Origin: a virus
Virus record (IMG/VR): IMGVR_UViG_3300046477_000733
Span: 1 to 32,116 of that record
Length of the DNA stretch: 32,116 nt
Reading direction: 5' to 3' (one strand)
Position numbers and translations under genes: made by a program. The stretch's first letter is position 1. Every line of letters starts with the position of its first letter. Below the pieces are notes generated by a model, which ran no database searches, was not told the origin of the DNA, and saw only the letters and a program-made list of their open reading frames with translations. Positions 1,843-24,241 of the stretch are shown piece by piece.

Positions 1843-2169
1843 CTACGCCAGCACGATCTCCCCGCCGCGCACCCAGAAATGCGCGTTGCAGCCACCCATC
1901 AGCTGCACGGAGGACGATCCCGCGACCAGCGTGAGATCCGCGTAGCCCGTCCCCTCGAAGTTCCAGCGTCCGGGCCCGGGCTTCACCGTCTGGGGGACGT
2001 GCGGCTGCCAGCACAGCACCATGTGAGTGCCGATCCTGCCGAAGTTCTTCTCGAAGCAGACCGGGCAGAGGAACTCGATGCCGTCGGCAGAGGCGATGTC
2101 GTCGTGCAGCGAGTAGCGCGACGGCGACGTGATCTTGAGGAACTGCGGTTCCAGCTGGGACAGCTTCAC
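1843..2169 (-). CDS. DUF6527 family protein
   Basis: A 108-residue protein starting at GTG, whose first bases overlap the portal stop (GTGA), so it is translated from the portal transcript. It carries the DUF6527 pattern: an early ADGIEFLCPVCF segment with a CxxC pair, then GTHMVLCWQP, a PGRWNFEGTGYADLTL strand, and a terminal CNAHFWVRGGEI. The CPVC pair and later Cys/His residues suggest a small metal-binding beta domain. The family occurs in phages and bacteria and has no established function. Its place at the end of the portal operon suggests a virion or packaging accessory role; that is inference from position. Confidence 0.75.
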   Translation of the reverse strand: MKLSQLEPQFLKITSPSRYSLHDDIASADGIEFLCPVCFEKNFGRIGTHMVLCWQPHVPQTVKPGPGRWNFEGTGYADLTLVAGSSSVQLMGGCNAHFWVRGGEIVLA

Positions 2170-3821
2170 CGCCCGAGCGCTCTCGCGAGATCAGCGCGCA
2201 CCCGGCCGTTGCGCTTGGCGGTGCCGTTGGCCGGCGCCGCATCCGCGGCCGCGGGATCCTCGGAGGCGTTCGGGTCCTCGACCGTCGGCGCCGGCAGCGG
2301 GCCGGGCGTCATGTTGAGGTCGATTCCCTTCTCCGCCGCGAGCTGCTCCTCCTGCGCGAGCTCCTCGAGGATCTCCTCGAAGTCATCGCCGCGGGCGGCC
2401 GCCAGGCGGTGCCGCGACGTGAGCCGCAGCTCAAGCATCAGCTTGTTCGCCTGGTTGTCCTTGTAGGGATCGACCCAGTCGAACCCGCGCGGGGTCCAGA
2501 GCGCCGCGCGATAGTCGCGCCAGTCGCCGCCAGGCAGCTCGAGCGCGCCGCTCAGCACGGCACTCTCCAGCCACCAGTTGTAGAGCTGGGTGCGGAAGCA
2601 GCGGATCCACCAGTTCTGGATCCGCTTCCAGACCGCACGCTCGATCAGCAGCCCGGCCCGAGCGCTCAGGTAGGTGACCTGCGAGAGGTCGCTCGAGAGC
2701 GACTCGTAGGTGACGTTGAGTCCGCTCGCCGCACCGCGCAGCACCGACCTCGAGAACTCGCCGAACGCGGTGGTCGGATGGTCCGGGGCGTACCCGCTGA
2801 ATTTCTGCCCCGGCCCGAGCTCCCAGATCGTGCCGGGCTCCGTCTCCATCGTGACGCGCGCGCCGCCCGAGCTGCCGCTCGCGCTGCCCGCCGCGGTGCC
2901 GTCCGTGACGGTGTCATCCGGTACCACGCCAACGCCGCCGTCGGCGTTCTCGATGAACCCCATCTTGGCGGCTCCCGCGGCCGAGGCGACCAGCTCGTTC
3001 TGGTGGTAGCGGCCGAGGTCCTGCAGCGGCGCCATCGCGCGGTGCAGCCAGGTGACCCCGCGCATCTGGTTCGCGCGCCTGGGGCGATAGAGATGGAGGA
3101 TCTCGCTCGCCGGGATCCGAATCAGCCCCTTGCCGGCGTAGGTCGGAGAGTACTGGGGCCAGTCGCGGACGTAGTAGGCCAGCCGGCGGCCGAGCTCGTC
3201 GACCTCGATGCCCATGAAGATCTTGGAGCCCGGCCCCGGGGCGCCCACGCCGTTGACGTTGTAGGTCTCGTCGACGAGATCGGGGTCGATCAGCTGGAGG
3301 GAGAGCCCGCTCGGGAACTCGCGGCCGAGCACGCGCCTGGGGAACGCCTCGCCCTCGCGCGCCACCGTCTCGATCGCGAGCTGCTCGTATTCGACGCCCG
3401 AGAGCATCCCGTCCGAGCTGATTGGGCCCTCGAAGTACTCCTTCCAGGCGTCCTCGATCATGCTGTTGGTGGCCTTGTCGAGGTCACCGTTGCGCCCCGG
3501 CAGGCGATTCTTCGCGCGCAGGCGCATCCCGTCCGGGCCGATGACGTTGTCGACCACCATGTCGAGGAACTGGCCGGCGTATTCGTTGTTGCGCGACAGC
3601 TCGCGCGCGCGGGCGCGCAGCGTGCGCATGTCGCCGCGCAGCTCGTCGTGGGGCGAGAGCAGCCCGGCGATCCAGTCCGAGTAGATGCGCGAGAACTCGG
3701 CGCCCTTGTAGACGCTGCGAGCCGAGAGCCGCGGGGCGGGGGTGCTCACCGCGCCCGCGGGCCCCGAGCGGAAACTCCGGATCGCGTCACTGAAGCGCTC
3801 GCGCAGCGTTCGCGTGGCCAT
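2166..3821 (-). CDS. Phage portal protein, lambda gpB type
   Basis: About 551 residues from ATG 3821; GTG 3824 immediately before it is also possible. It matches the lambda-type portal family: an N-terminal helical segment with a KGAEFSRIYSDWI-like stretch, RARARELSRNNEYAGQFLDMVVDNVIGPDG, then GEAFPRRV, LQLIDPDLVD, a HLYRPRRANQMRGVTWLHRAM region and a C-terminal QVTYLSARAGLL...WKRIQNWWI segment. Portals form the dodecameric ring at one capsid vertex through which DNA is packaged and ejected. Length is normal. The gene overlaps its upstream neighbour (TGATG) and the downstream DUF6527-like gene (GTGA). It is on the minus strand, opposite to the capsid and tail genes, and no terminase precedes it. 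Confidence 0.93.
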   Translation of the reverse strand: MATRTLRERFSDAIRSFRSGPAGAVSTPAPRLSARSVYKGAEFSRIYSDWIAGLLSPHDELRGDMRTLRARARELSRNNEYAGQFLDMVVDNVIGPDGMRLRAKNRLPGRNGDLDKATNSMIEDAWKEYFEGPISSDGMLSGVEYEQLAIETVAREGEAFPRRVLGREFPSGLSLQLIDPDLVDETYNVNGVGAPGPGSKIFMGIEVDELGRRLAYYVRDWPQYSPTYAGKGLIRIPASEILHLYRPRRANQMRGVTWLHRAMAPLQDLGRYHQNELVASAAGAAKMGFIENADGGVGVVPDDTVTDGTAAGSASGSSGGARVTMETEPGTIWELGPGQKFSGYAPDHPTTAFGEFSRSVLRGAASGLNVTYESLSSDLSQVTYLSARAGLLIERAVWKRIQNWWIRCFRTQLYNWWLESAVLSGALELPGGDWRDYRAALWTPRGFDWVDPYKDNQANKLMLELRLTSRHRLAAARGDDFEEILEELAQEEQLAAEKGIDLNMTPGPLPAPTVEDPNASEDPAAADAAPANGTAKRNGRVRADLARALGR

Positions 3822-4372
3822 CACATCCCCGGCTTTCGGAAGTCGACCATGTGCTGGCGCCCGATGCGCCCGCCGTTGCGCTGGCGCTGCACCGCGGCGA
3901 CCAGCTCGCCGCGCAGCTTCTTCAGCTCGTCGAGGTTCAGGTACTCACCGATGCGCCCGGCGATCTGGTAGCGCTGCAGCTTGCCGGCGATCATCGCGGC
4001 GATCGCACTCTCGACGGCGGCGAGCTGCTTCTCTTCCCACGTCTGAGCGTCGCCATCGGCGGCCGTCGCCAGGTTCCGCGTGACGGAGACCACGCCCGTC
4101 GCCGCGTCGTAGGTCTCGCCGCTCTTGGTCGCGCGTTCCGTCCAACGGTAGGTCCCAGGCGGAAGCACCGCGGTCGCCGCGGCGGTGAGCGTTATATCGA
4201 ACGCATCACCATTCGGACTGCCGGCAACGGTGAGCGTATCGGCCCCGGCGAGGAAGAAGGCGAGCGTCCAGCTGCCGCTCGCGGGGAAGTCCGAGTGCAG
4301 GCGGGTGAGCTTGACGGTGGTGCCGGCGGCGAAGGCCTCGGGCATTGCGGTGAGCGGGTCCACGCGACCCAA
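3821..4372 (-). CDS. Phage connector-like protein (gpW-like C-terminus)
   Basis: The longest reading starts at TTG 4372 (183 residues); ATG 4345 gives 174 residues. Neither has a good Shine-Dalgarno. The N-terminal two thirds look like a beta sandwich seen beside phage portals: FAAGTTVKLTRLHSDFPASG, then WTLAFFLAG, and PPGTYRWTERATKSG. The C-terminal third is helical (AAMIAGKLQRYQIAGRIGEY, then LDELKKLRGELVAAV), the pattern of gpW-type head-tail connector or head-completion proteins. Such proteins sit next to portal genes, as here. It is probably a structural or assembly protein of the head-tail interface. The first gene of the minus-strand portal operon. Confidence 0.65.
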   Translation of the reverse strand: MGRVDPLTAMPEAFAAGTTVKLTRLHSDFPASGSWTLAFFLAGADTLTVAGSPNGDAFDITLTAAATAVLPPGTYRWTERATKSGETYDAATGVVSVTRNLATAADGDAQTWEEKQLAAVESAIAAMIAGKLQRYQIAGRIGEYLNLDELKKLRGELVAAVQRQRNGGRIGRQHMVDFRKPGM

Positions 4373-4485: not shown

Positions 4486-5310
4486 ATGAACGCTCGCATC
4501 ACCAGCAACCGACAGGGCCGCACGCTCGACATCCGAGGCCTCGGCCTGCTGCTCCTCACCGCGACCGCGCTTGCCCTCGGCGCCGGCCTCGCGCATTCCG
4601 ATGGGATCCCCGTCTACAAGGAGGGCACCCGCGCAGTCCCTCAGGCCTGGCCGGGTGACGCGAACGCCCGCGACGGCGTGCAGATGGAAATGGTCGACGG
4701 GGATTCAACCCGCTACCTCGTCCGCGGAAATGCCAGCACCGGAGTCGTGGTGAGCGTGAGCAACCCGCCCCAGGGCTGGATCTACCGCTACCAGTCGATC
4801 ATCCAGTCGAGCACGATCTCGAAGCAGGCGCCCGACTCCAGCGCGTGCTATCCGGCGAGGGGCGCGACCCGCTGGTTGATCCGGATCTACCCGACCTACG
4901 ACGACTCGACCGCCGCGACCGTGCTCCTGATCGCGCTCCGCGGTCATCCGGTCCAGAGCGCCGATTCGCTCAGCACCTACGTCAACCTCTGGCGCCGCTC
5001 GAGACAGAACCCAGCCTCTTCAACCACCGTCGCTGCGACCGGTGCTGCCGGCCAGGACTCGATCGGCTCGATCGTCGAGGTCATGAACGGCAGCTCGTGG
5101 GCGACGGGCAGCGCGCAGAGCGGCGACTACGTGGTCCCGCTGGGCCCCGGCAAGACCCCGCGCGGCCGCGAGTTCTGGATCGATTGGTCCGACGACTTCC
5201 TTTCGGTCTTCGCGCGCGTCGCGGCCACCTACAACTCGGCAGGCAGCGCCTATTCGGCGTCGACGGAGCCCCACCTCACCTACCGCATGGACGCGTACGG
5301 ATATCGTTGA
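4486..5310 (+). CDS. Secreted protein of unknown function in the head module
   Basis: 274 residues. ATG 4486 follows a good ribosome-binding site (GGAGGA, 4477-4482). Residues 1-38 form a Sec signal peptide: basic start, then GLLLLTATALALGAGLAHS. The mature part is rich in Ser, Thr, Tyr and Trp, with alternating strands (IYRYQSIIQSS, WLIRIYPTY, ATVLLIALRG) suggesting a beta sandwich. It does not match a family I recognise. The stop overlaps the next start (TGATG), and that gene overlaps the capsid gene, so all three are translationally linked. Export of a protein made from a head operon is unexpected. It could be a lysogen surface factor, or a periplasmic or cell-surface protein that binds virions during release. 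Confidence 0.6.
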   Translation: MNARITSNRQGRTLDIRGLGLLLLTATALALGAGLAHSDGIPVYKEGTRAVPQAWPGDANARDGVQMEMVDGDSTRYLVRGNASTGVVVSVSNPPQGWIYRYQSIIQSSTISKQAPDSSACYPARGATRWLIRIYPTYDDSTAATVLLIALRGHPVQSADSLSTYVNLWRRSRQNPASSTTVAATGAAGQDSIGSIVEVMNGSSWATGSAQSGDYVVPLGPGKTPRGREFWIDWSDDFLSVFARVAATYNSAGSAYSASTEPHLTYRMDAYGYR

Positions 5311-7379
5311 TGCGCGCGCGCCTTCTTCCCGTCCTCGCTGCTCTCTGCCTCGCGCTGCCCGCCGGCGCCACCGGCCGGACCGGCGTCATCGTCGTGCGCC
5401 ACCCGATCGACGCGGCCTCCGTCGGCACCACGCCCCAGAATCTGCAGACTTCCTCGCAGCTGATCGAGTCGGAGCTGCTGGTGCGCAACTCGCCGACCAC
5501 GCTGCTGCCGGCGAGCGCCTGCGTGACCGCCGACATCTCGAACAATCGCTTCAGCTCCGAAGGCGTCACGACGCAGGCGGCCATCACCATCCATGAGAAC
5601 TGGTCGCTGGTGGCCTCGCAGAATCTCTACCCGTCGACCTTCCAGCCTTGGACGTTCCTCTCGGGCGCCACGTGGCCGGCGGGACCCCAGATCTGGTTCA
5701 TCGCGCCGGTCAGCGGCTGCGGGGTCAACGACCCCACTCCGACCGATTCCATGGGGGTCAGCGACTGCTACGGGGGCGCGACCCCGCGCGGGACGATCTA
5801 CGACACTTCGAACCCCGGCCTTCGCTGGAAGAACCTCTACGCGAGCCCCAAGGCGGCCGTTCGCTGCAATGCGAGCAATCCGCGCTGCGGAACTCCAGTC
5901 GGCGGGATCCTCCGTTGCGTGCTCGGGTTCAAGGTCTCGGCCGGCAGCAATACGGCGGTCGCGAAGGATGTCGACTCGCTGCTTTCGCTGAAGACCGGCT
6001 CGACCGAGGACTCGATGCTGGTCTGGACGTGGGAGCGCTATCCGGGAGACCCGGCGCGACAGATCTTCTGCCAGGCAGCGGTCGGCGGCATCCTTGACCA
6101 GGGCGCGATCCTCATGGCGTTCGCACTGGGCGAGAGCACCTGCGTCAAGAATGGCGACACCATGTTCCCCGATCGCGCCGCGATGACGCAGGAGTACGGC
6201 CTCGGGCTGATGCGCGCGAACGGCTACGGCAAGCCCAAGGATTCGAACCTCTTCTACAACGGCGTCTACTGCCCGCCCGGCGATTCCTGCGACATCCCGA
6301 ACGTGACGGCCGGACTCGACACGCTGAAGAAGCTGGGCATCAACGCCACCGCGTTCGTCGATCCCGAGAGCCTGAGCACCTCTCGCGGCGCCACGCTGAT
6401 GGCCCTCCTGCTCAAGTACCCGAATATCTCGTTCGCGCTCCAGCCGGTGTCCGGCACCTACGTCGACGGCGGCGCGGGAGCCTCCACCACTCGCGCCGGC
6501 GGCGCGGGGCGCTGCATCGATCCGATCGGCATCCTCCGTCGCCGGACGATCTTCCCCTACCCGCTCGCGGTCGGGGCGCGCTACGACACGCTCACCTGCG
6601 TGGCCGATTCGGGCTCGGTCGCGTGCAATCTGATCAACGGCTACAAGGCGCTCGCGGCCTACGTCGGACCCGATCGCGTGGACTGGACACTCGCGCCGGG
6701 CGCCTGGGACTGGACCCCGCAGGAGTGGACGGTACGCGCTGCCGGCGCCGTCCAGGCTCCGATCGACAACGTCATCAACGGAAATCATCTCGCGACAAGT
6801 GGCGGAGTCTGGGGCGGGCAGGATTCGCTCGTCGCGGCCTTCAGGGCCGCGAGGATCCGATCGGTCCTCTTCTGCCCGACGGCACCCGGCGCGAACGTTG
6901 GCGTCAGCTGGTCCGCCGAGAGCGGAACGCTCACGGGAGGCACTGCGCCGGCGGGATGGGCCCCGAACGAGTCGCAGCTGCGCTTCAACTGGGGCGGGAT
7001 CACCTACGACGGCGTCGCGCTGCTCGGCACCCGCTGGGAGCCGGACGCGCCGATGTGGACCTGGCAGCAGGCGACCCATGGCGGGCTCGGGAACGAATGG
7101 AACGCCGGAGCCACGACCGGCAAGTTCTATCTCTTCGACGCCGGCGTCTACTACAAGCACAGCTTCTACACGAGCACCAAGGTGTTCGCCGTGCAGTTCG
7201 CCTCGCTCGGCGGCCCATGGCCGAACCCCTGGCCCCAGTTTCCGGGCCTGCGCCAGATCCAGTGGATCACCGCCGGCTGGAAGGCCGCGGACGCGCACCT
7301 TCCGACCCGCCCCGATGGGACGAAGGGCTCCTTCGCGCACTGGACCCGCATCGATCGCGTGACCCCGAGGTATCCATGA
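5310..7379 (+). CDS. Large secreted protein, possibly polysaccharide-deacetylase-like
   Basis: 689 residues from ATG 5310, which overlaps the previous stop. It opens with a clear signal peptide (residues 1-22, LLPVLAALCLALPAGATG). The mature protein is rich in Cys, Trp and Tyr, with many cysteines that could form disulfides in the periplasm or outside the cell. In the middle, NVTAGLDTLKKLGINATAFV followed by YPNISFALQP has the rhythm of a TIM-barrel or polysaccharide-deacetylase (NodB-like) strand-helix unit, but I cannot find the full metal-binding Asp-His-His set, so this is a weak guess. Its stop overlaps the capsid gene start (ATGA), so capsid translation is probably coupled to it. Candidates are a cell-envelope glycan enzyme or an exported virion-associated factor. 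Confidence 0.5.
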   Translation: MRARLLPVLAALCLALPAGATGRTGVIVVRHPIDAASVGTTPQNLQTSSQLIESELLVRNSPTTLLPASACVTADISNNRFSSEGVTTQAAITIHENWSLVASQNLYPSTFQPWTFLSGATWPAGPQIWFIAPVSGCGVNDPTPTDSMGVSDCYGGATPRGTIYDTSNPGLRWKNLYASPKAAVRCNASNPRCGTPVGGILRCVLGFKVSAGSNTAVAKDVDSLLSLKTGSTEDSMLVWTWERYPGDPARQIFCQAAVGGILDQGAILMAFALGESTCVKNGDTMFPDRAAMTQEYGLGLMRANGYGKPKDSNLFYNGVYCPPGDSCDIPNVTAGLDTLKKLGINATAFVDPESLSTSRGATLMALLLKYPNISFALQPVSGTYVDGGAGASTTRAGGAGRCIDPIGILRRRTIFPYPLAVGARYDTLTCVADSGSVACNLINGYKALAAYVGPDRVDWTLAPGAWDWTPQEWTVRAAGAVQAPIDNVINGNHLATSGGVWGGQDSLVAAFRAARIRSVLFCPTAPGANVGVSWSAESGTLTGGTAPAGWAPNESQLRFNWGGITYDGVALLGTRWEPDAPMWTWQQATHGGLGNEWNAGATTGKFYLFDAGVYYKHSFYTSTKVFAVQFASLGGPWPNPWPQFPGLRQIQWITAGWKAADAHLPTRPDGTKGSFAHWTRIDRVTPRYP

Positions 7380-9436
7380 GCCCGCTTCCTGCGATGACCA
7401 CCGCGAAGGCCGCCGACATTCCCTCGAAGCTCCCAATGCAGCACCGCTTCGAGGCGCTCGAGATCACGCCGCACCGCACGCGCGCCGTCGACGGAATCGA
7501 AGGTCCCGTCGAAGAGAACGCCTACGACATCACCATCAGCAGCGAGAACCCGGTCAGCCGCTACAGCTACCTCGAGGTGCTGGGCCACGCCGCGGGCGAG
7601 GTCGACCTCACGTTCGCGCAGAACGGCATCAGCTTCATGCTCGAGCACGGCGGCGTGATGCAGAGCTGCTCTCCCGATCCCGACTACCACCTCGGCCTGA
7701 TCACCGAGCTCGCGGTAAGCAGTCGCAAGCTCGTCGGAGTCGCCCGCTTCGCCGGCGATGACGCCCTGAGCGATATCGCGCTGCGCGTGAAGCGCGACTG
7801 GGCATCCGGATCGCCGACGCGCCCGTTCATTTCCGCCGGCTGGGTTCCGGTCGCCCGAAAGATCACCGAGCCGACCAAGGATGGCGAGACCACCACCGTC
7901 CGCTACACGAAGTGGCAGATCCGGGAGGCGTCGAACGTCGCCATCCCGGCCGATCCCGCCGGCGCGAAGGCGCGTTCGGGCTCCCTCGAGGAGTTCGTGA
8001 TCGCCGACGAGCTGGACACCACGCAGCACCGAAGCCAGGAGGCACCGAAGATGGAACCGACCACCACGACCACCACCCCGTCCGCGCCCGCGGCCGCGCC
8101 GCCGGCCGGATCCGTCGCGGTGGGCGAGGACCGTCTCAAGGCGCGCAGCGACGAAGCCGCGCAGATCGTCAGCCTGTGCGTCGCCCAGAACTGCGCCAGC
8201 CGCGCGGCGGAATTCATCTCGGGCGGGCTGACGCTCGCCGAGGTCAAGACCCGGCTGTTCGACGAGCTCACCGCGAAGAGCCGCAGCACCACGGTCGGCG
8301 CGCCGCCCGCCGAAGCCCTCGACGGTCTGACCCGCAAGGAGCGCAAGATCTACTCCTACCGCAACGCGGCGATGCTCGCGCTGCGCTCCCGCTCCGGGAT
8401 GCGCAACGAGAAGTGCCTCGAGCTCGACGTGCACGAGGAGATGGTGAAGCTCGCCCCGCGCGAGTACCAGCAGCGCGGCGGCATCCTGGTGCCGTTCGAC
8501 ACCCGCTCCGAGCAGGAGATCATGGATGCGTGGGAGCAGAAGCAGCTCCGCACCCGCGCCATGGACACCAAGACCGCCGGCAAGGGTCTCGAGTGGGTCG
8601 GCCAGCAGACCATGCCGCTGGTCGAAGCGCTGGTGGCGATCGCCGTCATGCCGCGGCTCGGGGCGAACTTCAACACCGGGCTCACCAACATGCTGTCCTA
8701 CCCGCGCGAGACCGGGCTGCCCACGGTCAGCTTCATCGGTGAGACGCCGGCGAGCGGGCAGACGCTGACGGATTCCTCGACGGGCGAGATCCTGAGCGGG
8801 CCGAAGCAGATGATCGGCGGCGTCAAGATGTCGCGCCAGTGGCTGTTCCAGACGCAGGGCGCCGGCGAGGCCCGCGTGCGCAACGCGCTGGTCGGCGGCA
8901 CCGCCCGCGCGCTCGACCGCAATGGCTTCACCGGCCTCGGCCACTCGAGCCAGCCCACCGGTCTCTACTTCCTGACCGGCGTCAACTCGACGGCCATGAG
9001 CAGCATCGCGCCGACCATGGCCAAGATCGTCGACATGGGCGGGAAGATCTCCGACCAGAACGCCGACGTCGGCCGGATGGGATGGGCGACCACGTCGCTG
9101 CTCGCCTGGTTCCTGCGCAGCAAGCTCGAGTTCACCTCGGCCGGCTCGAACCCGATCTGGACCGGGCCGATCCAGGACGGACTGATCGCCGGCTACCGCG
9201 CCATCGGTTCCACCCAGATGAGCAAGGCCCTCGGCGCCGGCGCCGATGAGCACGGCTTCATCTTCGGCAACTGGGAGTTCTGCGACGTCAATCTGTGGGG
9301 CGGCACCGAGCTGGTGGTCGACGAGCTGTCCGCCGGCGACGCCGCGCAGGTGATCATCCGCTCCTACGGGATGGGCGACGTCGTCTTCACCCACCCCGAG
9401 GCCTTCTCGATCGGCACCGCCGCGAAGCCCGCGTAA
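7376..9436 (+). CDS. Prohead protease-major capsid protein fusion (HK97 fold)
   Basis: 686 residues. Residues 1-200 are an S78-type prohead protease: the SFMLEHGG motif supplies the likely catalytic His91, FISAGWVP supplies Ser153, and WQIREASNVAIPADPAGAKA is the typical end of the domain. Residues 226-250 are a Thr/Pro/Ala-rich linker. The rest is an HK97-type major capsid protein with a helical delta-like region (about 250-350), then GGILVPFDTR, SFIGETPAS, MSRQWLFQTQ, and a C-terminal GDVVFTHPEAFSIGTAAKP typical of this fold. In the family the protease removes the delta domain during maturation. Fusion of protease and capsid in one ORF is known in some phages. An internal strong ribosome-binding site before Met226 suggests separate production of capsid protein as well. 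Confidence 0.9.
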   Translation: MSPLPAMTTAKAADIPSKLPMQHRFEALEITPHRTRAVDGIEGPVEENAYDITISSENPVSRYSYLEVLGHAAGEVDLTFAQNGISFMLEHGGVMQSCSPDPDYHLGLITELAVSSRKLVGVARFAGDDALSDIALRVKRDWASGSPTRPFISAGWVPVARKITEPTKDGETTTVRYTKWQIREASNVAIPADPAGAKARSGSLEEFVIADELDTTQHRSQEAPKMEPTTTTTTPSAPAAAPPAGSVAVGEDRLKARSDEAAQIVSLCVAQNCASRAAEFISGGLTLAEVKTRLFDELTAKSRSTTVGAPPAEALDGLTRKERKIYSYRNAAMLALRSRSGMRNEKCLELDVHEEMVKLAPREYQQRGGILVPFDTRSEQEIMDAWEQKQLRTRAMDTKTAGKGLEWVGQQTMPLVEALVAIAVMPRLGANFNTGLTNMLSYPRETGLPTVSFIGETPASGQTLTDSSTGEILSGPKQMIGGVKMSRQWLFQTQGAGEARVRNALVGGTARALDRNGFTGLGHSSQPTGLYFLTGVNSTAMSSIAPTMAKIVDMGGKISDQNADVGRMGWATTSLLAWFLRSKLEFTSAGSNPIWTGPIQDGLIAGYRAIGSTQMSKALGAGADEHGFIFGNWEFCDVNLWGGTELVVDELSAGDAAQVIIRSYGMGDVVFTHPEAFSIGTAAKPA
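8037..8053 (+). promoter_or_regulatory. Internal Shine-Dalgarno and start for capsid protein alone
   Basis: A perfect AGGAGG (8037-8042) is followed after 8 bases by an in-frame ATG at 8051 (Met226 of the fusion). Initiation here would give a 461-residue capsid protein without the protease. The site falls exactly at the junction between protease end and the Thr-rich linker, so it is unlikely to be chance coding sequence. Confidence 0.55.
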
Positions 9437-13456: not shown

Positions 13457-15268
13457 GTGGCCGACGAATCCGTCAATCTGATCCTCAAGGCCCGCGACGA
13501 GGCCACCGCCAAGGTCCGCGACCTCGCCAAGGAAGTCGGCGGCCTGGACGCGACAATGAAGCACCTCACCACGGGTGCGGGGGATTGGGGCGCAATCGCG
13601 TTCGGCATCAGCTCGGTGGCAGCGGCCGCGGTCGCCCTTGGTAAGCAATTTTCGGACAACGTCGAGCGCATGGACCGCGTCCATGACGTGACCGGAGCCG
13701 CGGTTCCGCAGATTCAGGTCCTGGAGCGGTCATTCGAGAACCTCGGACTCGGCGCCGATTCAGCGGACAAGACGATCGAGCGCATGGCGAAGGCGATCGG
13801 CAACAATGATCCGCTTCTGAAAAAGCTCGGCATCACCACCCGCGACGCCTACACGGCAACCATGCAGCTCGCGAAGGCCTTCGCCGAATCGGACGATCCG
13901 GCGACGAAGACGGCCATCGCCGTGAAGCTCCTCGGCAAATCGGGGCTGGAATCCGCCGGGGTTCTTTCGCGACTCGCCGAGGAGGCCCAGAAAACCAAGG
14001 GCGTCATGCAGGAATCGGGAGGCCTGTTCGGCGAGCAGACATTGCTGAACGCCGAGAAACTCCATGCGGCCCTCGACGCATTCAGCACCCGGTGGGCAAG
14101 CATGTGGTCCTCCATGCAAGCGGCCGCGTTGCCGGCGGCAACGAACATCGTGACCGCGATCAATAGCATCCTGCATGAACTCTCGAAGCCAGTGGATCGC
14201 GAGGCGGCCGGCGGTGGGAACGTGGACGGGATAGTCAACGCCTGGAAGCTCCGGCGGGAGGAGATGCAGAAGTACGATCAAGAGCGCGAGCGGATCTTCG
14301 AAAAGAGCATGAAATGGGACAGTCCCAACGCATTCGGCACCTCGGTACATTCCAGGACCTCATCCCGCGCGCTGCCCAAGACGGGGCAAGTGGTGATCGG
14401 GATCGACGCGGACGGGACCCCCATCTACGGCGACGCCCCAGACTCCGCATCCAAGGTCCGCGAGAATCGTCTCAATGAAATGATGCGCGTGCTTCAGGTC
14501 GGCCGCGCAGAGGCGGAGAAGTACATCGCTCGCCTGAACGAAATCGAAGATGCCCGCAAGGGCGTCCAGATCGCCGCGGAGATCGGCATCGATCTGGGCG
14601 CGCGTCACCCCGAGCTATCCACGGCCGGCCCCGGGAACCTGCAGCGCCGCCCCGGCGGCACTCTCATCGCAGGCGCCAACCCGGCAACCGGGGAGATGAT
14701 TTCCCAGGCCGAGCTCGATCGCATGAAGGCTTTCATGGACGCGTGGCTTGCACAGATGCCGAAAATGTCAGGGGCCCTCACGCTGGTGACTGAGAAGTGG
14801 CGCAATCTGATCAGCACGGACCTCTCGAAGGAGAACATTCTCGAGCAGGTATTCAACTCAGCCGACCAGGCGGCGCTCGCATTCGCCTCGAACGGCATCG
14901 ACCAGGCGACCCGCGGCATGCTGACCTTCCAGTCCGTCGGTACGTTCGCCGTCCGCGCGATCGAAGACGAATTCAAGCGCTTGAGCGCGCGAATCATAGC
15001 CAGCGGGATCATGAAGCTGGTGCTCGGCGGCGTCAGCCTGGCATTCGGAGGAGTCCCGGGCATTGCCGTCGCCGCGATCGCCGGCGCCAGCAATCCGCTC
15101 CTCTCGAGCAATGGGGGCTCCGGGGCAACCCCCGGCAGCGTCACCCAGATCACGAACCACAACTACATTCAGACGCTCGACAGCCGATCCCTGAAGATGG
15201 CGATGGCATTCCCGCACGGCTCCTTCGTGCGGGCACAGAACGAAATAAAGATCGGGTCGGCCTACTGA
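13457..15268 (+). CDS. Tail tape measure protein
   Basis: 603 residues from GTG 13457, one base after the previous stop. The start ESVNLILKARDEATAKVRDL, followed by KEVGGLDATMKHL and a Gly/Ala hydrophobic run (about residues 45-62), is the normal beginning of siphovirus tape measure proteins. A second hydrophobic block lies at about residues 520-555 (LVLGGVSLAFGGVPGIAVAA). Tape measures set tail length at about 0.15 nm per residue, which would predict a tail near 90 nm. The C-terminal hydrophobic region often enters or contacts the host membrane during DNA ejection. The middle is helical and charged. Base composition is slightly less GC-rich than its neighbours. Confidence 0.8.
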   Translation: MADESVNLILKARDEATAKVRDLAKEVGGLDATMKHLTTGAGDWGAIAFGISSVAAAAVALGKQFSDNVERMDRVHDVTGAAVPQIQVLERSFENLGLGADSADKTIERMAKAIGNNDPLLKKLGITTRDAYTATMQLAKAFAESDDPATKTAIAVKLLGKSGLESAGVLSRLAEEAQKTKGVMQESGGLFGEQTLLNAEKLHAALDAFSTRWASMWSSMQAAALPAATNIVTAINSILHELSKPVDREAAGGGNVDGIVNAWKLRREEMQKYDQERERIFEKSMKWDSPNAFGTSVHSRTSSRALPKTGQVVIGIDADGTPIYGDAPDSASKVRENRLNEMMRVLQVGRAEAEKYIARLNEIEDARKGVQIAAEIGIDLGARHPELSTAGPGNLQRRPGGTLIAGANPATGEMISQAELDRMKAFMDAWLAQMPKMSGALTLVTEKWRNLISTDLSKENILEQVFNSADQAALAFASNGIDQATRGMLTFQSVGTFAVRAIEDEFKRLSARIIASGIMKLVLGGVSLAFGGVPGIAVAAIAGASNPLLSSNGGSGATPGSVTQITNHNYIQTLDSRSLKMAMAFPHGSFVRAQNEIKIGSAY

Positions 15269-15269
15269 C

Positions 15270-16055
15270 ATGGCCACCGGCTCGCTGCGTTTCGGCTTCA
15301 CCAACCTGATCCAGACGGCCACCCTCAAGAACGGGACCGGCGGCGGCGCTCCCATCCGCGACGAAGTGGCGCCCTGGCTGATGGAGAACGCCCAGAACAA
15401 GGACCGCACCTTCGTCTGGCAGCAGTCATCCGGCGCCGGGCCGCAGAGCGTCGATTACAACCTCGCGGGCACTTCCACCGTCAGCTTCTTCGCCGCGCTC
15501 GGACACCGGGGCGCCCCCTCCAGCTCGGTAGGCGCAACCGCGGTGAACGTCTACACCCAGAACGGGGCCTACGCCGCCGGCGGGACGTGGGCCTTCCGGG
15601 GCCAGATCATCCTCGGCGCAGGCGTTCGCGACGGGATCCTGATCACCACCATCGCCAACGTGAACAGCATCCGCTACGAGCACGTCGTCTCCTCGGCCTT
15701 CACGATCGGGCGTCACTTCGCATCGGGCATCGATCTCGACCTCGGGATCATCTCTTCGTCCGGGCGGACCCGGGCACTCGTCAAGCCCATCCTCGAAAAC
15801 GAGGTCGGCGCGAACCCGACCAAGACGCGCGTCGGCGACAACCATTACATGCTCAATCTGCCCTACAAGAACATCACTGCCGCGATCCTCGCGAACCTCC
15901 GAGCGATTGCGGCGAAGGACGATCCCTTCCTGCTGGTGGACTACGACGGCACCCCCTATGAGTGCGTGATCGAGGGCAACACGTTGAGCGAGAGCCTCAC
16001 GTTCAACCTGCCCGAGATCTTTGACGCCCAGATCCAGCTGCGCACCCTCGGGTAG
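15270..16055 (+). CDS. Distal tail-like protein
   Basis: 261 residues, starting one base after the tape measure stop. It follows the tape measure and precedes the large hub gene, the usual place for a distal tail (Dit-like) or gpM/L-like protein. The sequence is mostly beta: VDYNLAGTSTVSFFAALGHR, then TWAFRGQIILGAG, IRYEHVVSSAFTIGRHFA, and a second half with MLNLPYKNITAAILANL and ECVIEGNTLSESLTFN. The DGTPYECVIEG stretch near the end is common in tail proteins that bridge tube and hub. I do not recognise a specific family, so the name rests on fold type and position. Confidence 0.5.
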   Translation: MATGSLRFGFTNLIQTATLKNGTGGGAPIRDEVAPWLMENAQNKDRTFVWQQSSGAGPQSVDYNLAGTSTVSFFAALGHRGAPSSSVGATAVNVYTQNGAYAAGGTWAFRGQIILGAGVRDGILITTIANVNSIRYEHVVSSAFTIGRHFASGIDLDLGIISSSGRTRALVKPILENEVGANPTKTRVGDNHYMLNLPYKNITAAILANLRAIAAKDDPFLLVDYDGTPYECVIEGNTLSESLTFNLPEIFDAQIQLRTLG

Positions 16056-16058
16056 CCC

Positions 16059-19000
16059 ATGGCGACTGCGGCATTCCTCGCCCGCTGGCTCACATCCACC
16101 CGTGACGCCGCGATCCTGCTGAAAGTCGAGCTGACCGATCCTTCGGCCCAGACCCTGTACCTCACGAATCGCTACGGGGTCGCCACGCCCGGCTCACCGC
16201 CGCGCTACTGGCAGCCGCTGCTCGAGGACGTCGGTCCGGTCTCGCATCAGGGTTCGCTCGGCTCCTTCGACCCTGTGCTCGCCACGTTCGAGTGTCAGCT
16301 GGCGCCCAATCGCCTGTCCTACCAGGCAGCGGGACTCGATGCGAGGGACGCGTTCGCCACGTTCTACTGGCTCGGGGCCAGGGTCACGCTTTACCAGTGG
16401 GAGATGGCGCTCACCGACTTCGCCGACGCCAACCAGATCTTCTCGGGCGTGATGATCGACTACCAGAGCGAGGCTGCGGGGATCCACATCTTCTGCCAGC
16501 AGCCGACGGATTGGATCGTGCGGGTGCCCTCGGCTGAGGTAACGCGCCAGAAGTACCCGCGCGCCCCGGAGAAATCCATCGGCCTGCCGGCCGGCGCGGT
16601 CTGCTACGGGGACGGCCGCACGCTGCCCTGCAGGGATACGCCCGGAATCAGTGGCACAATCAGCTACGGCACCTTCAACCAGTCGCTGGTCGGAGTGTTC
16701 GGCCTCCGCCGCGCGTTCGTGCGGGGAGTCGTGGTCGACCTCGGCAAGGGGGCGGGATCCAAGGGGCGCGTTCTCTTCGCGAACCACGCCTGCAAGCTCT
16801 GGAACAACGACTCCGGGGGGTCCACGCCGGCACTCATGATGGGCGATCGCGTCGGGGAAATGGATCCGGCCTCCGGGGAGGATTTCAACGGAGCGGGAGG
16901 CACGGGCTTCACCTACGACGACGTGACCAACGCCGGCGTCCAGCCCTTCGACTGTTTCTTTCCCGTGCTCCCGATCGATTCCAAGAAGTCGGCTGCCAAC
17001 CAGGGCGACAATGCGCGCGCCGCGACCGACGGCTTCAACGACACCAGCTACGCCGAGCTGGACTTCAGCGGTGGGAAGCTCGAGATCCTGATCCCGCTGC
17101 CGGATGTGTCACCGATGGGCCTGTACGTCTCCGCGAAGGACGTCTACGGATGGAGCACGTCGGCCGGGATCGTCGCCGTCCTCAAGGCAGACTTCACCAA
17201 CCCGGGGGCCGGCGGAGGCCACACCGCGACTCTGGCAAACACCGGCGGGCTCAATACCAAGATCGGCGCCGGCGCCTCGATCGTCTCGGGAACGCCCTCG
17301 TCGCAGTGGAACTTCGGCAGCGACGGCTGCTATCTGCGCGTCTACCTGGTCGGAGGAGCCGCCGGCGACAAGGCGCGGATCTACTTCGCCGGACTCGCGA
17401 TCAAATACCGGCCCAGCTGGCCGGTGTACGCCCCGGCCTACAAGGTTCAGATCCCGGGCGCCGAGGATTACCGCGTGGCGCACCGGTGGATGCCCGGCCT
17501 GCCCGGCAAGATCGAGATCTACAAGCACCGCTACTCCCACCAGCCCCACGATCAATGGTTCCCGGCTACGGAGCAGGTCACCGACGGCCAGTATTTCGCG
17601 GCGCTCCAGGGCTACGCCGACGACGGCGGCGGCACATACACCGGAGTCGCGAACGCCCTGATCGAGCTGCCGACCGATGTGATCCGGCACTTCCTCGCGG
17701 TGCAATGCGCACAATCGGCTTTCGAGACCGGCGGCGTCCGCGGCTCCTTTGTGGACGAGCGCGCCCACTTCGTCACCTGGCGGGGTTCCAGCATGAAGCT
17801 GGCAATCTCGATCCCCGAGTTCAGGGACTCCTCGGGGATCCTTCGCGATCTCGCCGGTTCTGCGCTCTGCTGGGTCTACATCTCGCGGCTCACCGGCAAG
17901 TGGAAGATCATCCCCTGGCGGATCGGCAGCGCCACCAACTGGACTCGCAAGCTCACGCGCTGGGACTTGATGGACCCGGCCGGGCCCAAGATGATTTTGC
18001 ACCGCGATCAGGTCATCAACGACCTGACATGCTCCTACGACTACGACGCCAACGGCAAGCAGTACATCTCGGAGACCTTCGTGGCCGCGGAGCGTTCCGG
18101 CTCCGGCCACCTCTACCGGTCTCTGCGGGACGAGAACACCACCGTCATCGCGTCCGAGTCGGATCGACTGGACTTCAACGACTCGGGCGGGAACAAGACC
18201 GCGAACCTCACGCCTGCGGCCTATGCACCGATCGACCTCGCGAACCACGTCGCCACCCAGATGAGCGCTGTCGCCACACGCGGCTACGCGAAGGTCGCCT
18301 ACGGTTTCGTGATCAAGACGGGCTACAACGACACCGTCTATGTCAGCGACGGAGCCAGCTTCACGGTCACGCTGCCGGCCGGCAACTACACCGGGGCCGC
18401 GCTCGCGGCCGCGCTGCAGGCCGCGCTGAATCTCGGCTCGACCAACTGGGTCGTGACCTATTCGCTCGCCACCCTGCTATTCACCATCGGGCGCAGCTCG
18501 GGGACCTGTCAGCTTCTGTGGGGCACCGCGGTCGCTGGAGCCCTGTTCGCCGGCATGGACGTCGTCCTCGGCTTCGAGATCAAGAACTACACGGGATCCG
18601 CGAGCTACGCCGGCGCCTTCATGGTCGAACCCGAACGGTTCGCGATCGCTCTCCTGACCGACAACCTCAAGCTGCTCTTCGAGACCGGCACCAATGGCAT
18701 CGACGCCGCCACCCCGCGCACCTGCGGGGCGCTTCTGGGTTTCGACACCGCCCGGGACTGGGACCTGACGGGGAGCTCCGTCGGCGCGAAAACCTTCGCG
18801 GTGGCCCATTCGCCGAAGAATGCCCGCGAGCTCGAGGTAGCGACCTCCATCGCGCGATACGGCAAGCGGCCGGGCACCGTCATGAGCCTGCGCGCGGTCA
18901 ACGACACCGACACCGCTCGCGAGGTACGCAACCGCAACTTCGACATCTGGAAGCAGGCGGTGGTCGAGATCCAGTTCGAGACCGAGCGCATGCCGGACGT

Positions 19001-19178
19001 CGATCTGGGCGATGTGATCGAGTTCGATTCGAGCATCGACGACGTCCAGCCCTTCGGAGTGCCAGGGACCAACGGGTCCTGGGCATCGAAGCGATTCATC
19101 GTCACCAGCATCGTCCAGCACTCCCTCCCGACCGTGCATCAGGAGATCGCGGCCTTCTGGGATTCGGCGTCGGCATGA
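16059..19178 (+). CDS. Tail tip/hub protein (Tal-like)
   Basis: 1039 residues. The N-terminus (TRDAAILLKVELTDPSAQTL, SFDPVLATFECQLAPNRLSY, RVTLYQWEMALTDFADANQI and FSGVMIDYQSEAAGIHIF) reads as a phage tail hub or baseplate domain. The middle contains beta-rich segments that could bind carbohydrate. Around residues 765-860 is a separate motif, FTVTLPAGNYTGAALAAALQ then a Tyr-rich strand, a domain type seen in virion structural proteins of several viruses. The C-terminal region returns to hub-like sequence (ELEVATSIARYGKRPG, FETERMPDVDLGDVIEFDSS). The protein is expected at the tail tip, where it contacts the tape measure and receptor-binding parts. The last bases overlap the next gene (ATGA). 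Confidence 0.65.
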   Translation: MATAAFLARWLTSTRDAAILLKVELTDPSAQTLYLTNRYGVATPGSPPRYWQPLLEDVGPVSHQGSLGSFDPVLATFECQLAPNRLSYQAAGLDARDAFATFYWLGARVTLYQWEMALTDFADANQIFSGVMIDYQSEAAGIHIFCQQPTDWIVRVPSAEVTRQKYPRAPEKSIGLPAGAVCYGDGRTLPCRDTPGISGTISYGTFNQSLVGVFGLRRAFVRGVVVDLGKGAGSKGRVLFANHACKLWNNDSGGSTPALMMGDRVGEMDPASGEDFNGAGGTGFTYDDVTNAGVQPFDCFFPVLPIDSKKSAANQGDNARAATDGFNDTSYAELDFSGGKLEILIPLPDVSPMGLYVSAKDVYGWSTSAGIVAVLKADFTNPGAGGGHTATLANTGGLNTKIGAGASIVSGTPSSQWNFGSDGCYLRVYLVGGAAGDKARIYFAGLAIKYRPSWPVYAPAYKVQIPGAEDYRVAHRWMPGLPGKIEIYKHRYSHQPHDQWFPATEQVTDGQYFAALQGYADDGGGTYTGVANALIELPTDVIRHFLAVQCAQSAFETGGVRGSFVDERAHFVTWRGSSMKLAISIPEFRDSSGILRDLAGSALCWVYISRLTGKWKIIPWRIGSATNWTRKLTRWDLMDPAGPKMILHRDQVINDLTCSYDYDANGKQYISETFVAAERSGSGHLYRSLRDENTTVIASESDRLDFNDSGGNKTANLTPAAYAPIDLANHVATQMSAVATRGYAKVAYGFVIKTGYNDTVYVSDGASFTVTLPAGNYTGAALAAALQAALNLGSTNWVVTYSLATLLFTIGRSSGTCQLLWGTAVAGALFAGMDVVLGFEIKNYTGSASYAGAFMVEPERFAIALLTDNLKLLFETGTNGIDAATPRTCGALLGFDTARDWDLTGSSVGAKTFAVAHSPKNARELEVATSIARYGKRPGTVMSLRAVNDTDTAREVRNRNFDIWKQAVVEIQFETERMPDVDLGDVIEFDSSIDDVQPFGVPGTNGSWASKRFIVTSIVQHSLPTVHQEIAAFWDSASA

Positions 19179-19882
19179 GCGAGATCATCGAGATCTCGGT
19201 CGACGCCGCACGCCCCCTGCTGCTGCTGAAGAACGGCGGCCGCAAGATGGCCTACGCCCTCGTGAACGCCCTGAACACGACCGCCAAAGCCGTCCAGGAG
19301 GCCGAACGCGCCCGGGTGCTGGGCCAGTTCGTGGTGCGCAAGCGCGAGTTCATCCTGCGCCAGGCCGCGATCATCAAGTTCGCGAGCGTCGGCCGCGAGC
19401 GCTATGAGGCGTCGATCTCGGTGGGGCAGAAGAAGAACCTGCTCCTCGCACGCTTCGAGGGCGGCGGCCCGCGCCAGCCCGTGAAGGGAAGGACGGCCGC
19501 GGTACCGATCATCGGCGGCCCCGCGCGCCCCAGCTTCGCCCAGAGCGTTCCGGATCCCTTCGCGTTCGCCCAGCTGCAGCTGAAGCCCGTGGGCGGCCGC
19601 TCGAAGCGCCGGGCCGGCAACGCCGTCGGCCAGTACAAGGGGGCACAGCGCACCTTCGAGCTCCCACATACTGAGCGCGCGCCTGACGGCGGCGTGTTCC
19701 AGCGCGTGGGCCCCGGCCGCGGGGACATCCGCCTGGTCTACGCCTTCGTCAGGAACCAGAAGCCGATCGACACTCGCCTCAGGTTCCTGCCGACCGGCCG
19801 CGACGCGGCGCTCAAGACTTTCGGGCCAGCGCTCCGCTCCGAGGTCCGCGCCTCGTTCGAGCACGCCTTCGGGCTGGGGTGA
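19175..19882 (+). CDS. Tail-associated phage protein, gpZ/HK97 gp10-like guess
   Basis: 235 residues from ATG 19175, which overlaps the hub stop. The first 60 residues are helical and basic (GRKMAYALVNALNTTAKAVQ, then EAERARVLGQFVV), similar in rhythm to minor tail proteins of the gpZ or HK97 gp10 type, which often contain a helix with a LNKTA-like motif. The remainder is rich in Arg, Pro and Gly with short strands (YEASISVGQKKN, IRLVYAFVRNQKP). No signal peptide or membrane segment is seen. It is the last gene before the lysis cassette. Its position after the hub is unusual for gpZ, so the family call is weak; a tail-associated role is more secure. Confidence 0.4.
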   Translation: MSEIIEISVDAARPLLLLKNGGRKMAYALVNALNTTAKAVQEAERARVLGQFVVRKREFILRQAAIIKFASVGRERYEASISVGQKKNLLLARFEGGGPRQPVKGRTAAVPIIGGPARPSFAQSVPDPFAFAQLQLKPVGGRSKRRAGNAVGQYKGAQRTFELPHTERAPDGGVFQRVGPGRGDIRLVYAFVRNQKPIDTRLRFLPTGRDAALKTFGPALRSEVRASFEHAFGLG

Positions 19883-19886
19883 GCCG

Positions 19887-20441
19887 ATGATCGACAAGGA
19901 CGCGGCGCTCAAGGGCTGGCTGGAGCGGGAGGGCGCGGTCTACACCGACCGGGCGGACGACCGCGGCGGCCCCACCAAGTTCGGGCTCACGCTGAGGCTC
20001 CTGCGCGACCACCTGAAGGACCAGATGATCCCCGCCTCGCGCCTCCAGGCCATGGAATGGGCCGAGGCCCGCGAGATCATCTGGCGGGTGTTCGCGGTCG
20101 AGAGCGGCTTCGCGGAGATCCAGAACCCGGTGCTCTTCGAGGTGGTCTGGGACGCCGCCGGTAACCACGGCGCCGGCCGAGCGATCCAGTGGCTGCAGGC
20201 TGCGCTCGGCGTCAAGGTCGACGGCATCTTTGGATCCCAGACTCGCGCGGCATTGCCCTACCTGAATGCCACCAAGCTCGCGCTGTTCTTCCAGTGCGCC
20301 CGGGAGCGCTTCTATTCGCTGATCGCGTCCCGCAACAAGGAGGACAACGACCATGACGGGATCCCCGACGCCCTCGAGAACCTGCCCGGCTGGATCAACC
20401 GGTCCGTGGGCATTACCGAAAAGATCGCCAGGAGCCTCTGA
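19887..20441 (+). CDS. Endolysin, GH108 muramidase with peptidoglycan-binding domain
   Basis: 184 residues. The N-terminal GH108 signature is clear: LEREGAVYTDRADDRGGPTK followed by FGLT, with Glu15 as the expected catalytic acid of the EGG-type motif. Residues 85-184 form the usual C-terminal peptidoglycan-binding helical domain (VVWDAAGNHGAGRAIQWLQA, then VDGIFGSQTRAAL). Such enzymes cleave N-acetylmuramic acid linkages in peptidoglycan at the end of infection. There is no signal peptide, so release needs a holin or similar; two membrane-protein genes follow. Oddly, residues 153-161 (DNDHDGIPD) form a DxDxDGxxD calcium-binding type loop inserted near the C-terminus, a loop typical of thrombospondin type 3 or EF-hand-like repeats. 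Confidence 0.85.
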   Translation: MIDKDAALKGWLEREGAVYTDRADDRGGPTKFGLTLRLLRDHLKDQMIPASRLQAMEWAEAREIIWRVFAVESGFAEIQNPVLFEVVWDAAGNHGAGRAIQWLQAALGVKVDGIFGSQTRAALPYLNATKLALFFQCARERFYSLIASRNKEDNDHDGIPDALENLPGWINRSVGITEKIARSL

Positions 20442-22616: not shown

Positions 22617-22714
22617 GCGCGGCTCCTTTCCATTCCCGAATCGCTGTGCGCGAAGCGAATGAGATCCGAGGCGCCAGCGTTGTCCAGAAAGCCTGCGCCA
22701 TACCGCACGGCGAT

Positions 22715-22730
22715 GCAACATATATGTTGC
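22715..22730. promoter_or_regulatory. Palindromic operator 1
   Basis: GCAACATATATGTTGC is a perfect 16-bp palindrome, very AT-rich in its centre against GC-rich surroundings. It lies in the divergent region between the superinfection immunity operon and the XRE-like regulator (start 22763). Its right half provides the -35 box of a candidate promoter. A near copy lies at 23071-23086. Confidence 0.65.
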
Positions 22731-22762: not shown

Positions 22763-23059
22763 ATGCCTAGGCCCCCACTGGATACGCCCCTGACCCAGCT
22801 CCGCCTCGACGCGCCCGGGTCCCTCCGCCAGTCCGACATCTCCGCCTTCATGGGCGAGGCGGGCCTCGAGCTGGCCAGGATCACCATCAGCGACTTCGAG
22901 CGCGGCAAATACCTGCCGGCCGATCCCCGGTTCATCCCGTTGTACGCGCAGGCCATCGGCAAGTCGCGCAAGGCCGTCCGGGAGGCCTACGAGCAGGCCC
23001 GCGCCCTGTACGAACGGGGACGGGCGTCCGAACCGCGTCGCCGAACGTCACCGCGTTGA
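22763..23059 (+). CDS. XRE-family transcriptional regulator
   Basis: 98 residues from ATG 22763. The HTH domain spans about residues 10-70: LTQLRLDAPGSLRQSDISAF, then LARITISDFERGKYLP as the recognition helix region and a third part with IPLYAQAIGKSRKAVREAYE. This is the usual lambda-repressor-like fold; there is no C-terminal dimerisation or self-cleavage domain, so it would not respond to RecA as CI does. A perfect palindrome lies 32 bp upstream of its start and a near copy lies after its stop, next to the integrase, so it probably controls itself and the integrase. It could be the immunity repressor or an excision/integration regulator. Confidence 0.7.
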   Translation: MPRPPLDTPLTQLRLDAPGSLRQSDISAFMGEAGLELARITISDFERGKYLPADPRFIPLYAQAIGKSRKAVREAYEQARALYERGRASEPRRRTSPR

Positions 23060-23070
23060 CGGTCGACAAT

Positions 23071-23086
23071 GCAACTTATATGTTGC
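23071..23086. promoter_or_regulatory. Palindromic operator 2
   Basis: GCAACTTATATGTTGC differs from the first palindrome at one base and is flanked by AT on both sides, giving a 20-bp near-palindrome. It lies between the stop of the XRE-like regulator and the integrase. Its right half supplies the -35 of a candidate promoter. Confidence 0.65.
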
Positions 23087-24109: not shown

Positions 24110-24162
24110 TGGTAGCGGGGGCTGGATTTGAACCAGCGACCTTCGGGTTATGAGCCCGACGA
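24110..24162 (-). other. attP core: 3' part of initiator tRNA-Met (CAU)
   Basis: Read on the minus strand, this 53-bp stretch is the anticodon arm, variable loop, T arm, acceptor 3' strand and CCA of a tRNA-Met. The anticodon CAT is at 24152-24150 in a loop closed by GGG/CCC pairs, the mark of bacterial initiator tRNA. The T arm is GCTGG-TTCAAAT-CCAGC and the end is CCCCGCTACCA. Match to tRNA stops at the D-arm side (beyond 24162), so the 5' half is absent. A 3' tRNA copy next to an integrase is the usual form of attP for tyrosine recombinases using tRNA genes. With phage-like genes on both sides it is more likely attP than a host junction. Confidence 0.8.
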
Positions 24163-24241
24163 TCACGAGTGCATGGGACCTTCCGACATGGAGGTCTTGT
24201 GTCGGTTGTCTCCCCAGTGCAGCGCGCGAACGGATCGCGCG

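What the first reader, a model, noticed from the sequence alone, without database searches (positions are those of the whole stretch)
4486..9436. Two secreted proteins translationally coupled to the capsid gene
Two consecutive genes with clear signal peptides (274 and 689 residues) overlap each other and the protease-capsid gene (TGATG, then ATGA). Head operons usually contain only cytoplasmic assembly proteins, so export of products made at capsid levels suggests either virion components that meet the particle outside the cytoplasm, a surface-modifying activity during late infection, or factors delivered at lysis. The larger protein is Cys- and Trp-rich and has a weak polysaccharide-deacetylase-like rhythm. 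I recognise neither as a known family. This is my main candidate for an undescribed system.
Basis: partly seen in the sequence, partly recalled or inferred. Interest (0 to 1): 0.68.

Follow-up and report, generated by a model that had tools for sequence, protein, structure and literature searches.

The report
Exported protein pair tied to phage tail
A temperate phage carries two adjacent genes for exported proteins of no known family; in its only two known relatives the same pair sits behind the tail-tip gene instead of the capsid gene, so it most likely acts on the host surface in step with how the phage attaches, which is uncommon but has precedents.

Summary
Two genes (P1, 274 aa, 4486-5310; P2, 689 aa, 5310-7379) overlap each other and the protease-capsid gene (TGATG, ATGA), and both have Sec-type signal peptides. 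The signals persist in relatives. P2 also keeps 13 invariant cysteines, with even counts (14, 16, 18) in the three mature proteins, as expected of an exported, disulfide-bonded protein.

The link to the capsid is misleading. The pair was found in only two other viral contigs. In both it follows the ~1,000-aa tail-tip/hub gene directly and lies nowhere near the head genes. The heads of those phages are unrelated to this one; what all three share is the tape-measure C-terminus, two tail-tip genes, P1, P2 and a ParB-like gene. Here the pair sits in a rearranged head region where gpW and portal run on the opposite strand.

Neither protein matches Pfam, NCBIfam, PHROGs, PADLOC, PDB, phage or plasmid records. 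AlphaFold failed for P2 and gave only a low-confidence beta-sandwich for P1.

Best reading (0.42): a mobile, tail-tip-matched cassette of exported proteins that masks or modifies the receptor, working like the cor/Llp exclusion cassettes but not homologous to them. Tail appendages with odd N-termini and secreted surface enzymes remain open.

The parts
4486..5310 (+). P1, 274 aa exported protein; signal peptide about residues 1-36/38
   Evidence: predicted helix 16-36 followed only by beta strands, mean pLDDT 50
4486..4599 (+). P1 signal peptide region (net charge +3, then GLGLLLLTATALALGAGLAHS)
5310..7379 (+). P2, 689 aa exported, Cys/Trp-rich orphan protein; 13 Cys invariant in three phages
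5310..5369 (+). P2 signal peptide MRARLLPVLAALCLALPAGA|TGRTG
5308..5312 (+). TGATG overlap of the P1 stop and P2 start
7376..7379 (+). ATGA overlap of the P2 stop and protease-capsid start; in the relatives the P2 stop makes the same 4-base overlap (ATGA, GTGA) with an unrelated small gene
7376..9436 (+). protease-major capsid fusion (context, not part of the conserved cassette)
   Evidence: phrog_617, PF05065
4367..4449 (.). concentric dyad (CCCAAAGTGgCGCG...ATTGAAG-N5-CTTCAAT...CGCGgCACTTTGGG, centre 4408) between divergent gpW and P1; possible regulatory site, weak support
   Evidence: 2 of 300 shuffles as symmetric, but 45 of 914 windows of the contig reach the same score; RNA fold z -1.4
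3821..4345 (-). gpW-like head-tail joining protein, divergent from P1 (context; ORF open to 4372)
   Evidence: phrog_5774 E 3e-25
2166..3824 (-). lambda-type portal, divergent from P1 (context)
   Evidence: PF05136 E 5e-84, phrog_21 E 2e-93
13457..15268 (+). tape measure; its C-terminus is shared with both phages that carry P1-P2
15270..16055 (+). distal-tail-like protein co-inherited with P1-P2 (44-54% identity)
16059..19178 (+). tail-tip/hub-like protein, 1039 aa; its homologue is the gene directly upstream of P1 in both relatives (51-52% identity)

Best explanation
P1 and P2 are Sec-exported proteins encoded by a two-gene cassette that travels with the tail-tip genes of a small group of phages. 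P1 is probably a beta-sandwich protein; P2 is a large disulfide-bonded protein. Most likely they act in the envelope or on the surface of the infected or lysogenic cell on the same structure that the tail tip recognises. By binding, masking or altering that receptor they would prevent superinfection and keep progeny from adsorbing to debris at lysis. That is how the cor/Llp cassettes of T1, N15, phi80, HK022, ES18 and T5 work. In this contig the cassette has been moved next to the capsid gene by a rearrangement of the head region. Shown here: export signals, conservation of the pair, linkage to the tail-tip module, independence from the head genes. Inferred: the surface target, the receptor link and the masking mechanism.
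For: Signal peptides conserved in type while their letters diverge. P2 Cys content with even counts in all three mature proteins (14, 16, 18), and two Cys (columns of G001 C268 and C338) present together in both relatives and absent together in the window. Pair adjacent in all three phages. In both relatives it comes directly after the tail-tip gene. Window head genes have no tblastn match in the relatives and the relatives' terminase, portal, protease and capsid have none in the window, while tape-measure C-terminus, gp15270, gp16059, P1 and P2 are shared. Relatives add a small one-helix membrane protein between P1 and P2 (joined in frame to P2 in G002) and a signal-peptide outer-membrane-barrel-like protein downstream (barrel assignment from sequence only). 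Precedent: PMC13164509 reports Cor plus a membrane-associated and an outer-membrane protein directly downstream of the tail-fibre cluster in unrelated phages that share the receptor FhuA, absent from close relatives with other receptors; PMC9586334 covers T5 Llp.
Against: No sequence similarity to Cor, Llp or any known exclusion protein was found. Known exclusion lipoproteins are much smaller than 689 aa (own knowledge). Only one P1 homologue (G001) has a lipobox-like FTGC. In the relatives the genes overlap tail and lysis genes, which suggests late expression, whereas T1 Cor and T5 Llp act early. Receptor and host are unknown. Linkage to the tail tip rests on three contigs, and in the window itself the pair is not next to the tail-tip gene.
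Confidence: 0.42

Rival explanations
1. P1 and P2 are virion tail appendages (fibre or receptor-binding proteins) in the usual slot after the hub gene. The hydrophobic N-terminus is an assembly or membrane-insertion element, or they are exported and meet the particle outside the cytoplasm.
For: Gene order in both relatives is TMP - distal tail - hub/tip - P1 - P2 - small genes - endolysin, the normal receptor-binding slot. Translational overlaps with neighbouring late genes. P1 predicted as a beta-sandwich, common in tail appendages. The window has no other obvious fibre gene after gp16059.
Against: Classical signal peptides with AxA cleavage sites, and a Cys-rich P2, fit export and not cytoplasmic tail assembly. 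No match to any PHROG tail family and no convincing fold match for P1.
Confidence: 0.28
2. P2 is a secreted polysaccharide-active enzyme (a barrel hydrolase or deacetylase relative) and P1 a carbohydrate-binding partner; they clear or modify the host surface polymer late in infection to help release and spread.
For: Middle of P2 (about 265-620) has recurring hydrophobic strands ending in invariant acidic or polar residues (FALGE, AFVDPE, FALQP, DWTPQE, GWSAE, YLFDAG; read by eye). The only slightly better part of the AF2 model there is helix-strand-helix-helix-strand (329-377, pLDDT about 35-42). A CBM4 is among the weak fold matches of P1. Relative G002 encodes a further secreted FN3-containing protein.
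Against: No family or PDB match at E 10; no NodB metal triad; model confidence too low to define a fold.
Confidence: 0.2
3. The contig is a chimera: the join between P1-P2 and the head genes is an assembly or amplification artefact, and in the real phage the pair follows gp16059 as in the relatives.
For: gpW-portal is inverted against the canonical TerL-W-portal-capsid order of RcRhea, S-LBS1 and VP882; no packaging-type terminase was recognised in the window; both relatives have the other arrangement.
Against: The P2-capsid junction shares only about 8 bases with the corresponding G001 junction (TCCATGAG), too little for a k-mer assembler to join on, and it preserves a clean ATGA overlap. GC content and codon-position bias are continuous across it.
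Confidence: 0.1

Closest known systems
cor cassette of T1, N15, phi80, HK022, ES18 (membrane-associated protein + outer-membrane protein + Cor lipoprotein; PMC13164509)
   Same: Small cassette of exported or membrane proteins found directly downstream of tail genes in otherwise unrelated phages that share an adsorption device.
   Different: No sequence similarity found; P2 is much larger and Cys-rich; lipobox-like motif in only one P1 homologue; in the window the cassette sits by the capsid gene; receptor unknown.
T5 Llp (FhuA-blocking lipoprotein; PMC9586334)
   Same: Phage-encoded exported protein thought to act on the receptor that the phage uses.
   Different: Llp is a single small lipoprotein made early; here there are two proteins in late-gene surroundings with SPI-type signals.
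Tail fibre / receptor-binding proteins downstream of the hub gene in siphophages
   Same: Gene position in both relatives; possibly a beta-sandwich P1.
   Different: Cleavable-type signal peptides and a Cys-rich P2.
NodB-type polysaccharide deacetylases
   Same: A vague strand-helix rhythm around LDTLKKLGINATAFVDPES.
   Different: No TFDDG or HxxxH motif and no profile match.

Membership tests
Cor/Llp superinfection-exclusion proteins | Export signal (lipoprotein type) | tested here: inconclusive
   Signals present in all homologues, but SPI-like; only the G001 P1 has a lipobox-like FTGC
Cor/Llp superinfection-exclusion proteins | Sequence homology to Cor or Llp | tested here: not met
   No PHROG, Pfam, NCBIfam or PADLOC match; no tblastn match in 50,697 phage records
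Cor/Llp superinfection-exclusion proteins | Gene lies directly behind the tail fibre/tip genes in phages with unrelated heads | tested here: met
   True for both relatives, not for the window itself
Cor/Llp superinfection-exclusion proteins | Blocks adsorption to the phage's own receptor | not testable with these tools
   Needs host and phage
Tail fibre / receptor-binding protein | Matches a tail profile or fold | tested here: not met
   No PHROG tail family; Foldseek hits listed for P1 have TM to the query of about 0.3 or less, and that model has mean pLDDT 50
Tail fibre / receptor-binding protein | Present in the virion | not testable with these tools
   Needs proteomics
Polysaccharide deacetylase (NodB) | Profile match and Asp-His-His metal site | tested here: not met
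   No Pfam or PDB hit at E 10; the four invariant His form no HxxxH
Cytoplasmic head protein (decoration or scaffold) | Conserved position in the head operon | tested here: not met
   Absent between portal and capsid in RcRhea, S-LBS1, VP882; pair is by the tail tip in the relatives

The most novel reading that the evidence does not exclude
P1 and P2 are genuine virion appendages that are exported through Sec, form disulfides outside the cytoplasm, and join the tail only in the periplasm or at lysis: a two-compartment assembly route for a tailed phage.
Probability: 0.1. Interest if true: 0.85.

Novelty: new variant of a known kind. Interest (0 to 1): 0.45.

Why it matters
If right, tail-tip-matched exported cassettes like cor are not a peculiarity of FhuA phages of enteric bacteria but occur, with unrelated and much larger proteins, in uncultured phages. 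Genes that travel with a tail tip and carry signal peptides would then be markers for receptor-directed functions in viromes. If the pair is instead in the virion, it would challenge the rule that tailed-phage structural proteins are assembled in the cytoplasm.

Tried and rejected
Family searches of P1 and P2 in PHROGs, Pfam (P2 to E 10), PADLOC, and of P2 in NCBIfam: nothing useful. PDB sequence search with full and middle-domain P2 profiles: none at E 10; with P1: only PrgJ at E 0.57. tblastn in phages (P1, P2) and plasmids (P2): none. Scans of 84,980 genomes with P2 and tail-tip profiles: no relative, so no host. AlphaFold: P2 failed (pLDDT 27), P1 weak (50); P1 fold hits (picornavirus-type jelly rolls, CBM4, BppU) judged not meaningful. 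Capsid scan of viral contigs: no close relative; portal scan: six loci at 32-42% identity, not annotated further. Another secreted gene upstream of TerS in both relatives was tested as a P1 paralogue: not homologous. Inverted repeat near 4369/4449 as an invertase site: no other copy in the window beyond chance. Three literature searches for signal peptides on tailed-phage virion proteins gave no precedent, but the library lacks most subscription journals.

Full report
Observation. The window is a 32,116-base IMG/VR virus record. P1 (4486-5310) and P2 (5310-7379) are as described, with TGATG and ATGA overlaps, and the downstream gene is a protease-capsid fusion. Both begin with a positively charged, then hydrophobic N-terminus ending in a signal-peptidase-I-type site. 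In a simple test 2.2% of 3637 background start codons pass, while P1 and P2 of the window, both proteins of one relative, and P1 and the long N-terminal form of P2 of the other pass; a shorter possible start of that last P2 does not. In P2 the cleavage context A-x-A|TGRTG is kept in all three phages while the letters before it diverge. In P1 the N-terminal letters diverge but the character is kept. P2 has 14, 18 and 16 cysteines after the signal in the three phages, 13 of them invariant, and far more Cys than the structural proteins of the window. dN is well below dS for P2 in every comparison and for P1 between the two relatives; for the distant P1 comparisons dN 0.62 against dS about 0.8 is closer to saturation. 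Export of both proteins is therefore the likely reading; SignalP was not available.

Context. gpW-like and portal genes lie on the minus strand directly upstream. In phages with the same type of capsid (RcRhea, S-LBS1, VP882) the order is TerS-TerL-(W)-portal-capsid on one strand, with portal directly next to capsid (RcRhea has two extra genes after TerL). The window's head region is thus rearranged: the gpW-portal block is inverted and P1-P2 stand where portal should be. No packaging-type terminase was recognised in the window; the HerA/FtsK-like ATPase at 27819-29588 has only a distant match to a PHROG labelled terminase. No terminator-like site separates P1, P2 and capsid, so they are probably co-transcribed here.

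Relatives. Scans of 2.9 million viral contigs with P2, P1 and tail-tip profiles all led to the same two contigs: G001 = IMGVR_UViG_3300046526_000393 and G002 = IMGVR_UViG_3300046516_000910. In both, P1 and P2 follow directly after a 1014-1021 aa homologue of window gp16059 and are followed by a 170-aa protein, another small gene and a cell-wall hydrolase. In G001 a small one-helix membrane protein lies between P1 and P2; in G002 its equivalent is in frame with P2. Window against relatives: tape-measure C-terminus, gp15270 (44-54%), gp16059 (51-52%), P1 (41-42%), P2 (67%) and a ParB-like gene (38-40%) are shared. Terminase, portal, protease and capsid show no match. The pair therefore belongs with the tail tip and not with the head, and its place by the capsid is particular to this contig. 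The 4-base overlap of the P2 stop with the next gene occurs in all three phages, with capsid in one and a small gene in the others.

Identity. Neither protein matches any library used, the PDB, or phage or plasmid records; two genome scans found no relative in 84,980 species. With three-sequence alignments AlphaFold gave P1 as an N-terminal helix plus a beta-sandwich at pLDDT 50, with no reliable fold match, and failed for P2. The deacetylase hint is not supported: no profile match and no HxxxH site. A barrel-like alternation of strands ending in acidic residues in P2 is my reading of the alignment only.

Mechanism. The best-documented parallel is the cor cassette. According to PMC13164509, Cor with two membrane or outer-membrane proteins lies directly behind the tail-fibre genes in unrelated phages that share FhuA as receptor and is missing in relatives with other receptors; Cor, like T5 Llp (PMC9586334), blocks the receptor. 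The P1-P2 cassette shows the same genomic logic: exported products, behind the tail tip, in phages with unrelated heads. I therefore think it most likely that P1 and P2 act on the surface structure recognised by this tail tip, for exclusion or to protect progeny at lysis. Export and linkage are shown; target and action are inferred. Rivals are virion appendages in the normal receptor-binding slot, a secreted polysaccharide-active enzyme with a binding partner, and a chimeric contig for the window's arrangement.

Verdict. Moderate interest, since three contigs, no host and no structure leave the function open.

Noticed in passing
window 1843-4372 (-): gpW-like, portal and a 108-aa downstream gene are inverted relative to the canonical TerL-W-portal-capsid order; no packaging-type terminase was recognised in the contig.
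   Followed up: partly
window 24119-24184 (-), integrase 23167-24000 (+): Rfam tRNA match of 30.9 bits beside a tyrosine integrase; it reads like the 3' part of a tRNA-Met gene including CCA, with no matching 5' half, so probably an attP core for integration into a host tRNA gene. ARAGORN calls no tRNA.
   Followed up: partly
window 22687-22730 and 23043-23086: Two copies of the palindrome GCAAC(A/T)TATATGTTGC upstream of the integrase, a likely operator or arm-type site.
   Followed up: no
window 29585-30145 (+): A further membrane-anchored or exported-looking protein whose end (ELFDIAGRKVSLPAPAGIYFENI..RIRRIVVIR) resembles the C-terminal sorting tails of FCB-group bacteria; no Pfam match, but a hint of the host.
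   Followed up: partly
L004:11132-11833 and L018:4798-5394: Both relatives encode another signal-peptide protein (about 200-234 aa) directly upstream of the small terminase gene; the two are not detectably homologous to each other or to P1.
   Followed up: partly
L005:14155-14697 and L007 about 16450-17003: Both relatives encode an outer-membrane-barrel-like protein with a signal peptide behind the lysis genes (34% identity); no Pfam match.
   Followed up: partly
L007 about 14221-16121: Relative G002 has a large secreted protein, parallel-beta-helix-like by eye, with a C-terminal fibronectin III domain, near the lysis genes.
   Followed up: partly
L004:12283-13773 and L018:5820-7469: Both large-terminase reading frames start with a hydrophobic, signal-like stretch overlapping the small-terminase gene; possibly chance or a start-site effect.
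   Followed up: no
window 19175-19882 (+): A basic protein of about 235 aa between the tail-tip gene and the GH108 endolysin gene (19887-20441), the place where P1-P2 lie in the relatives.
   Followed up: no
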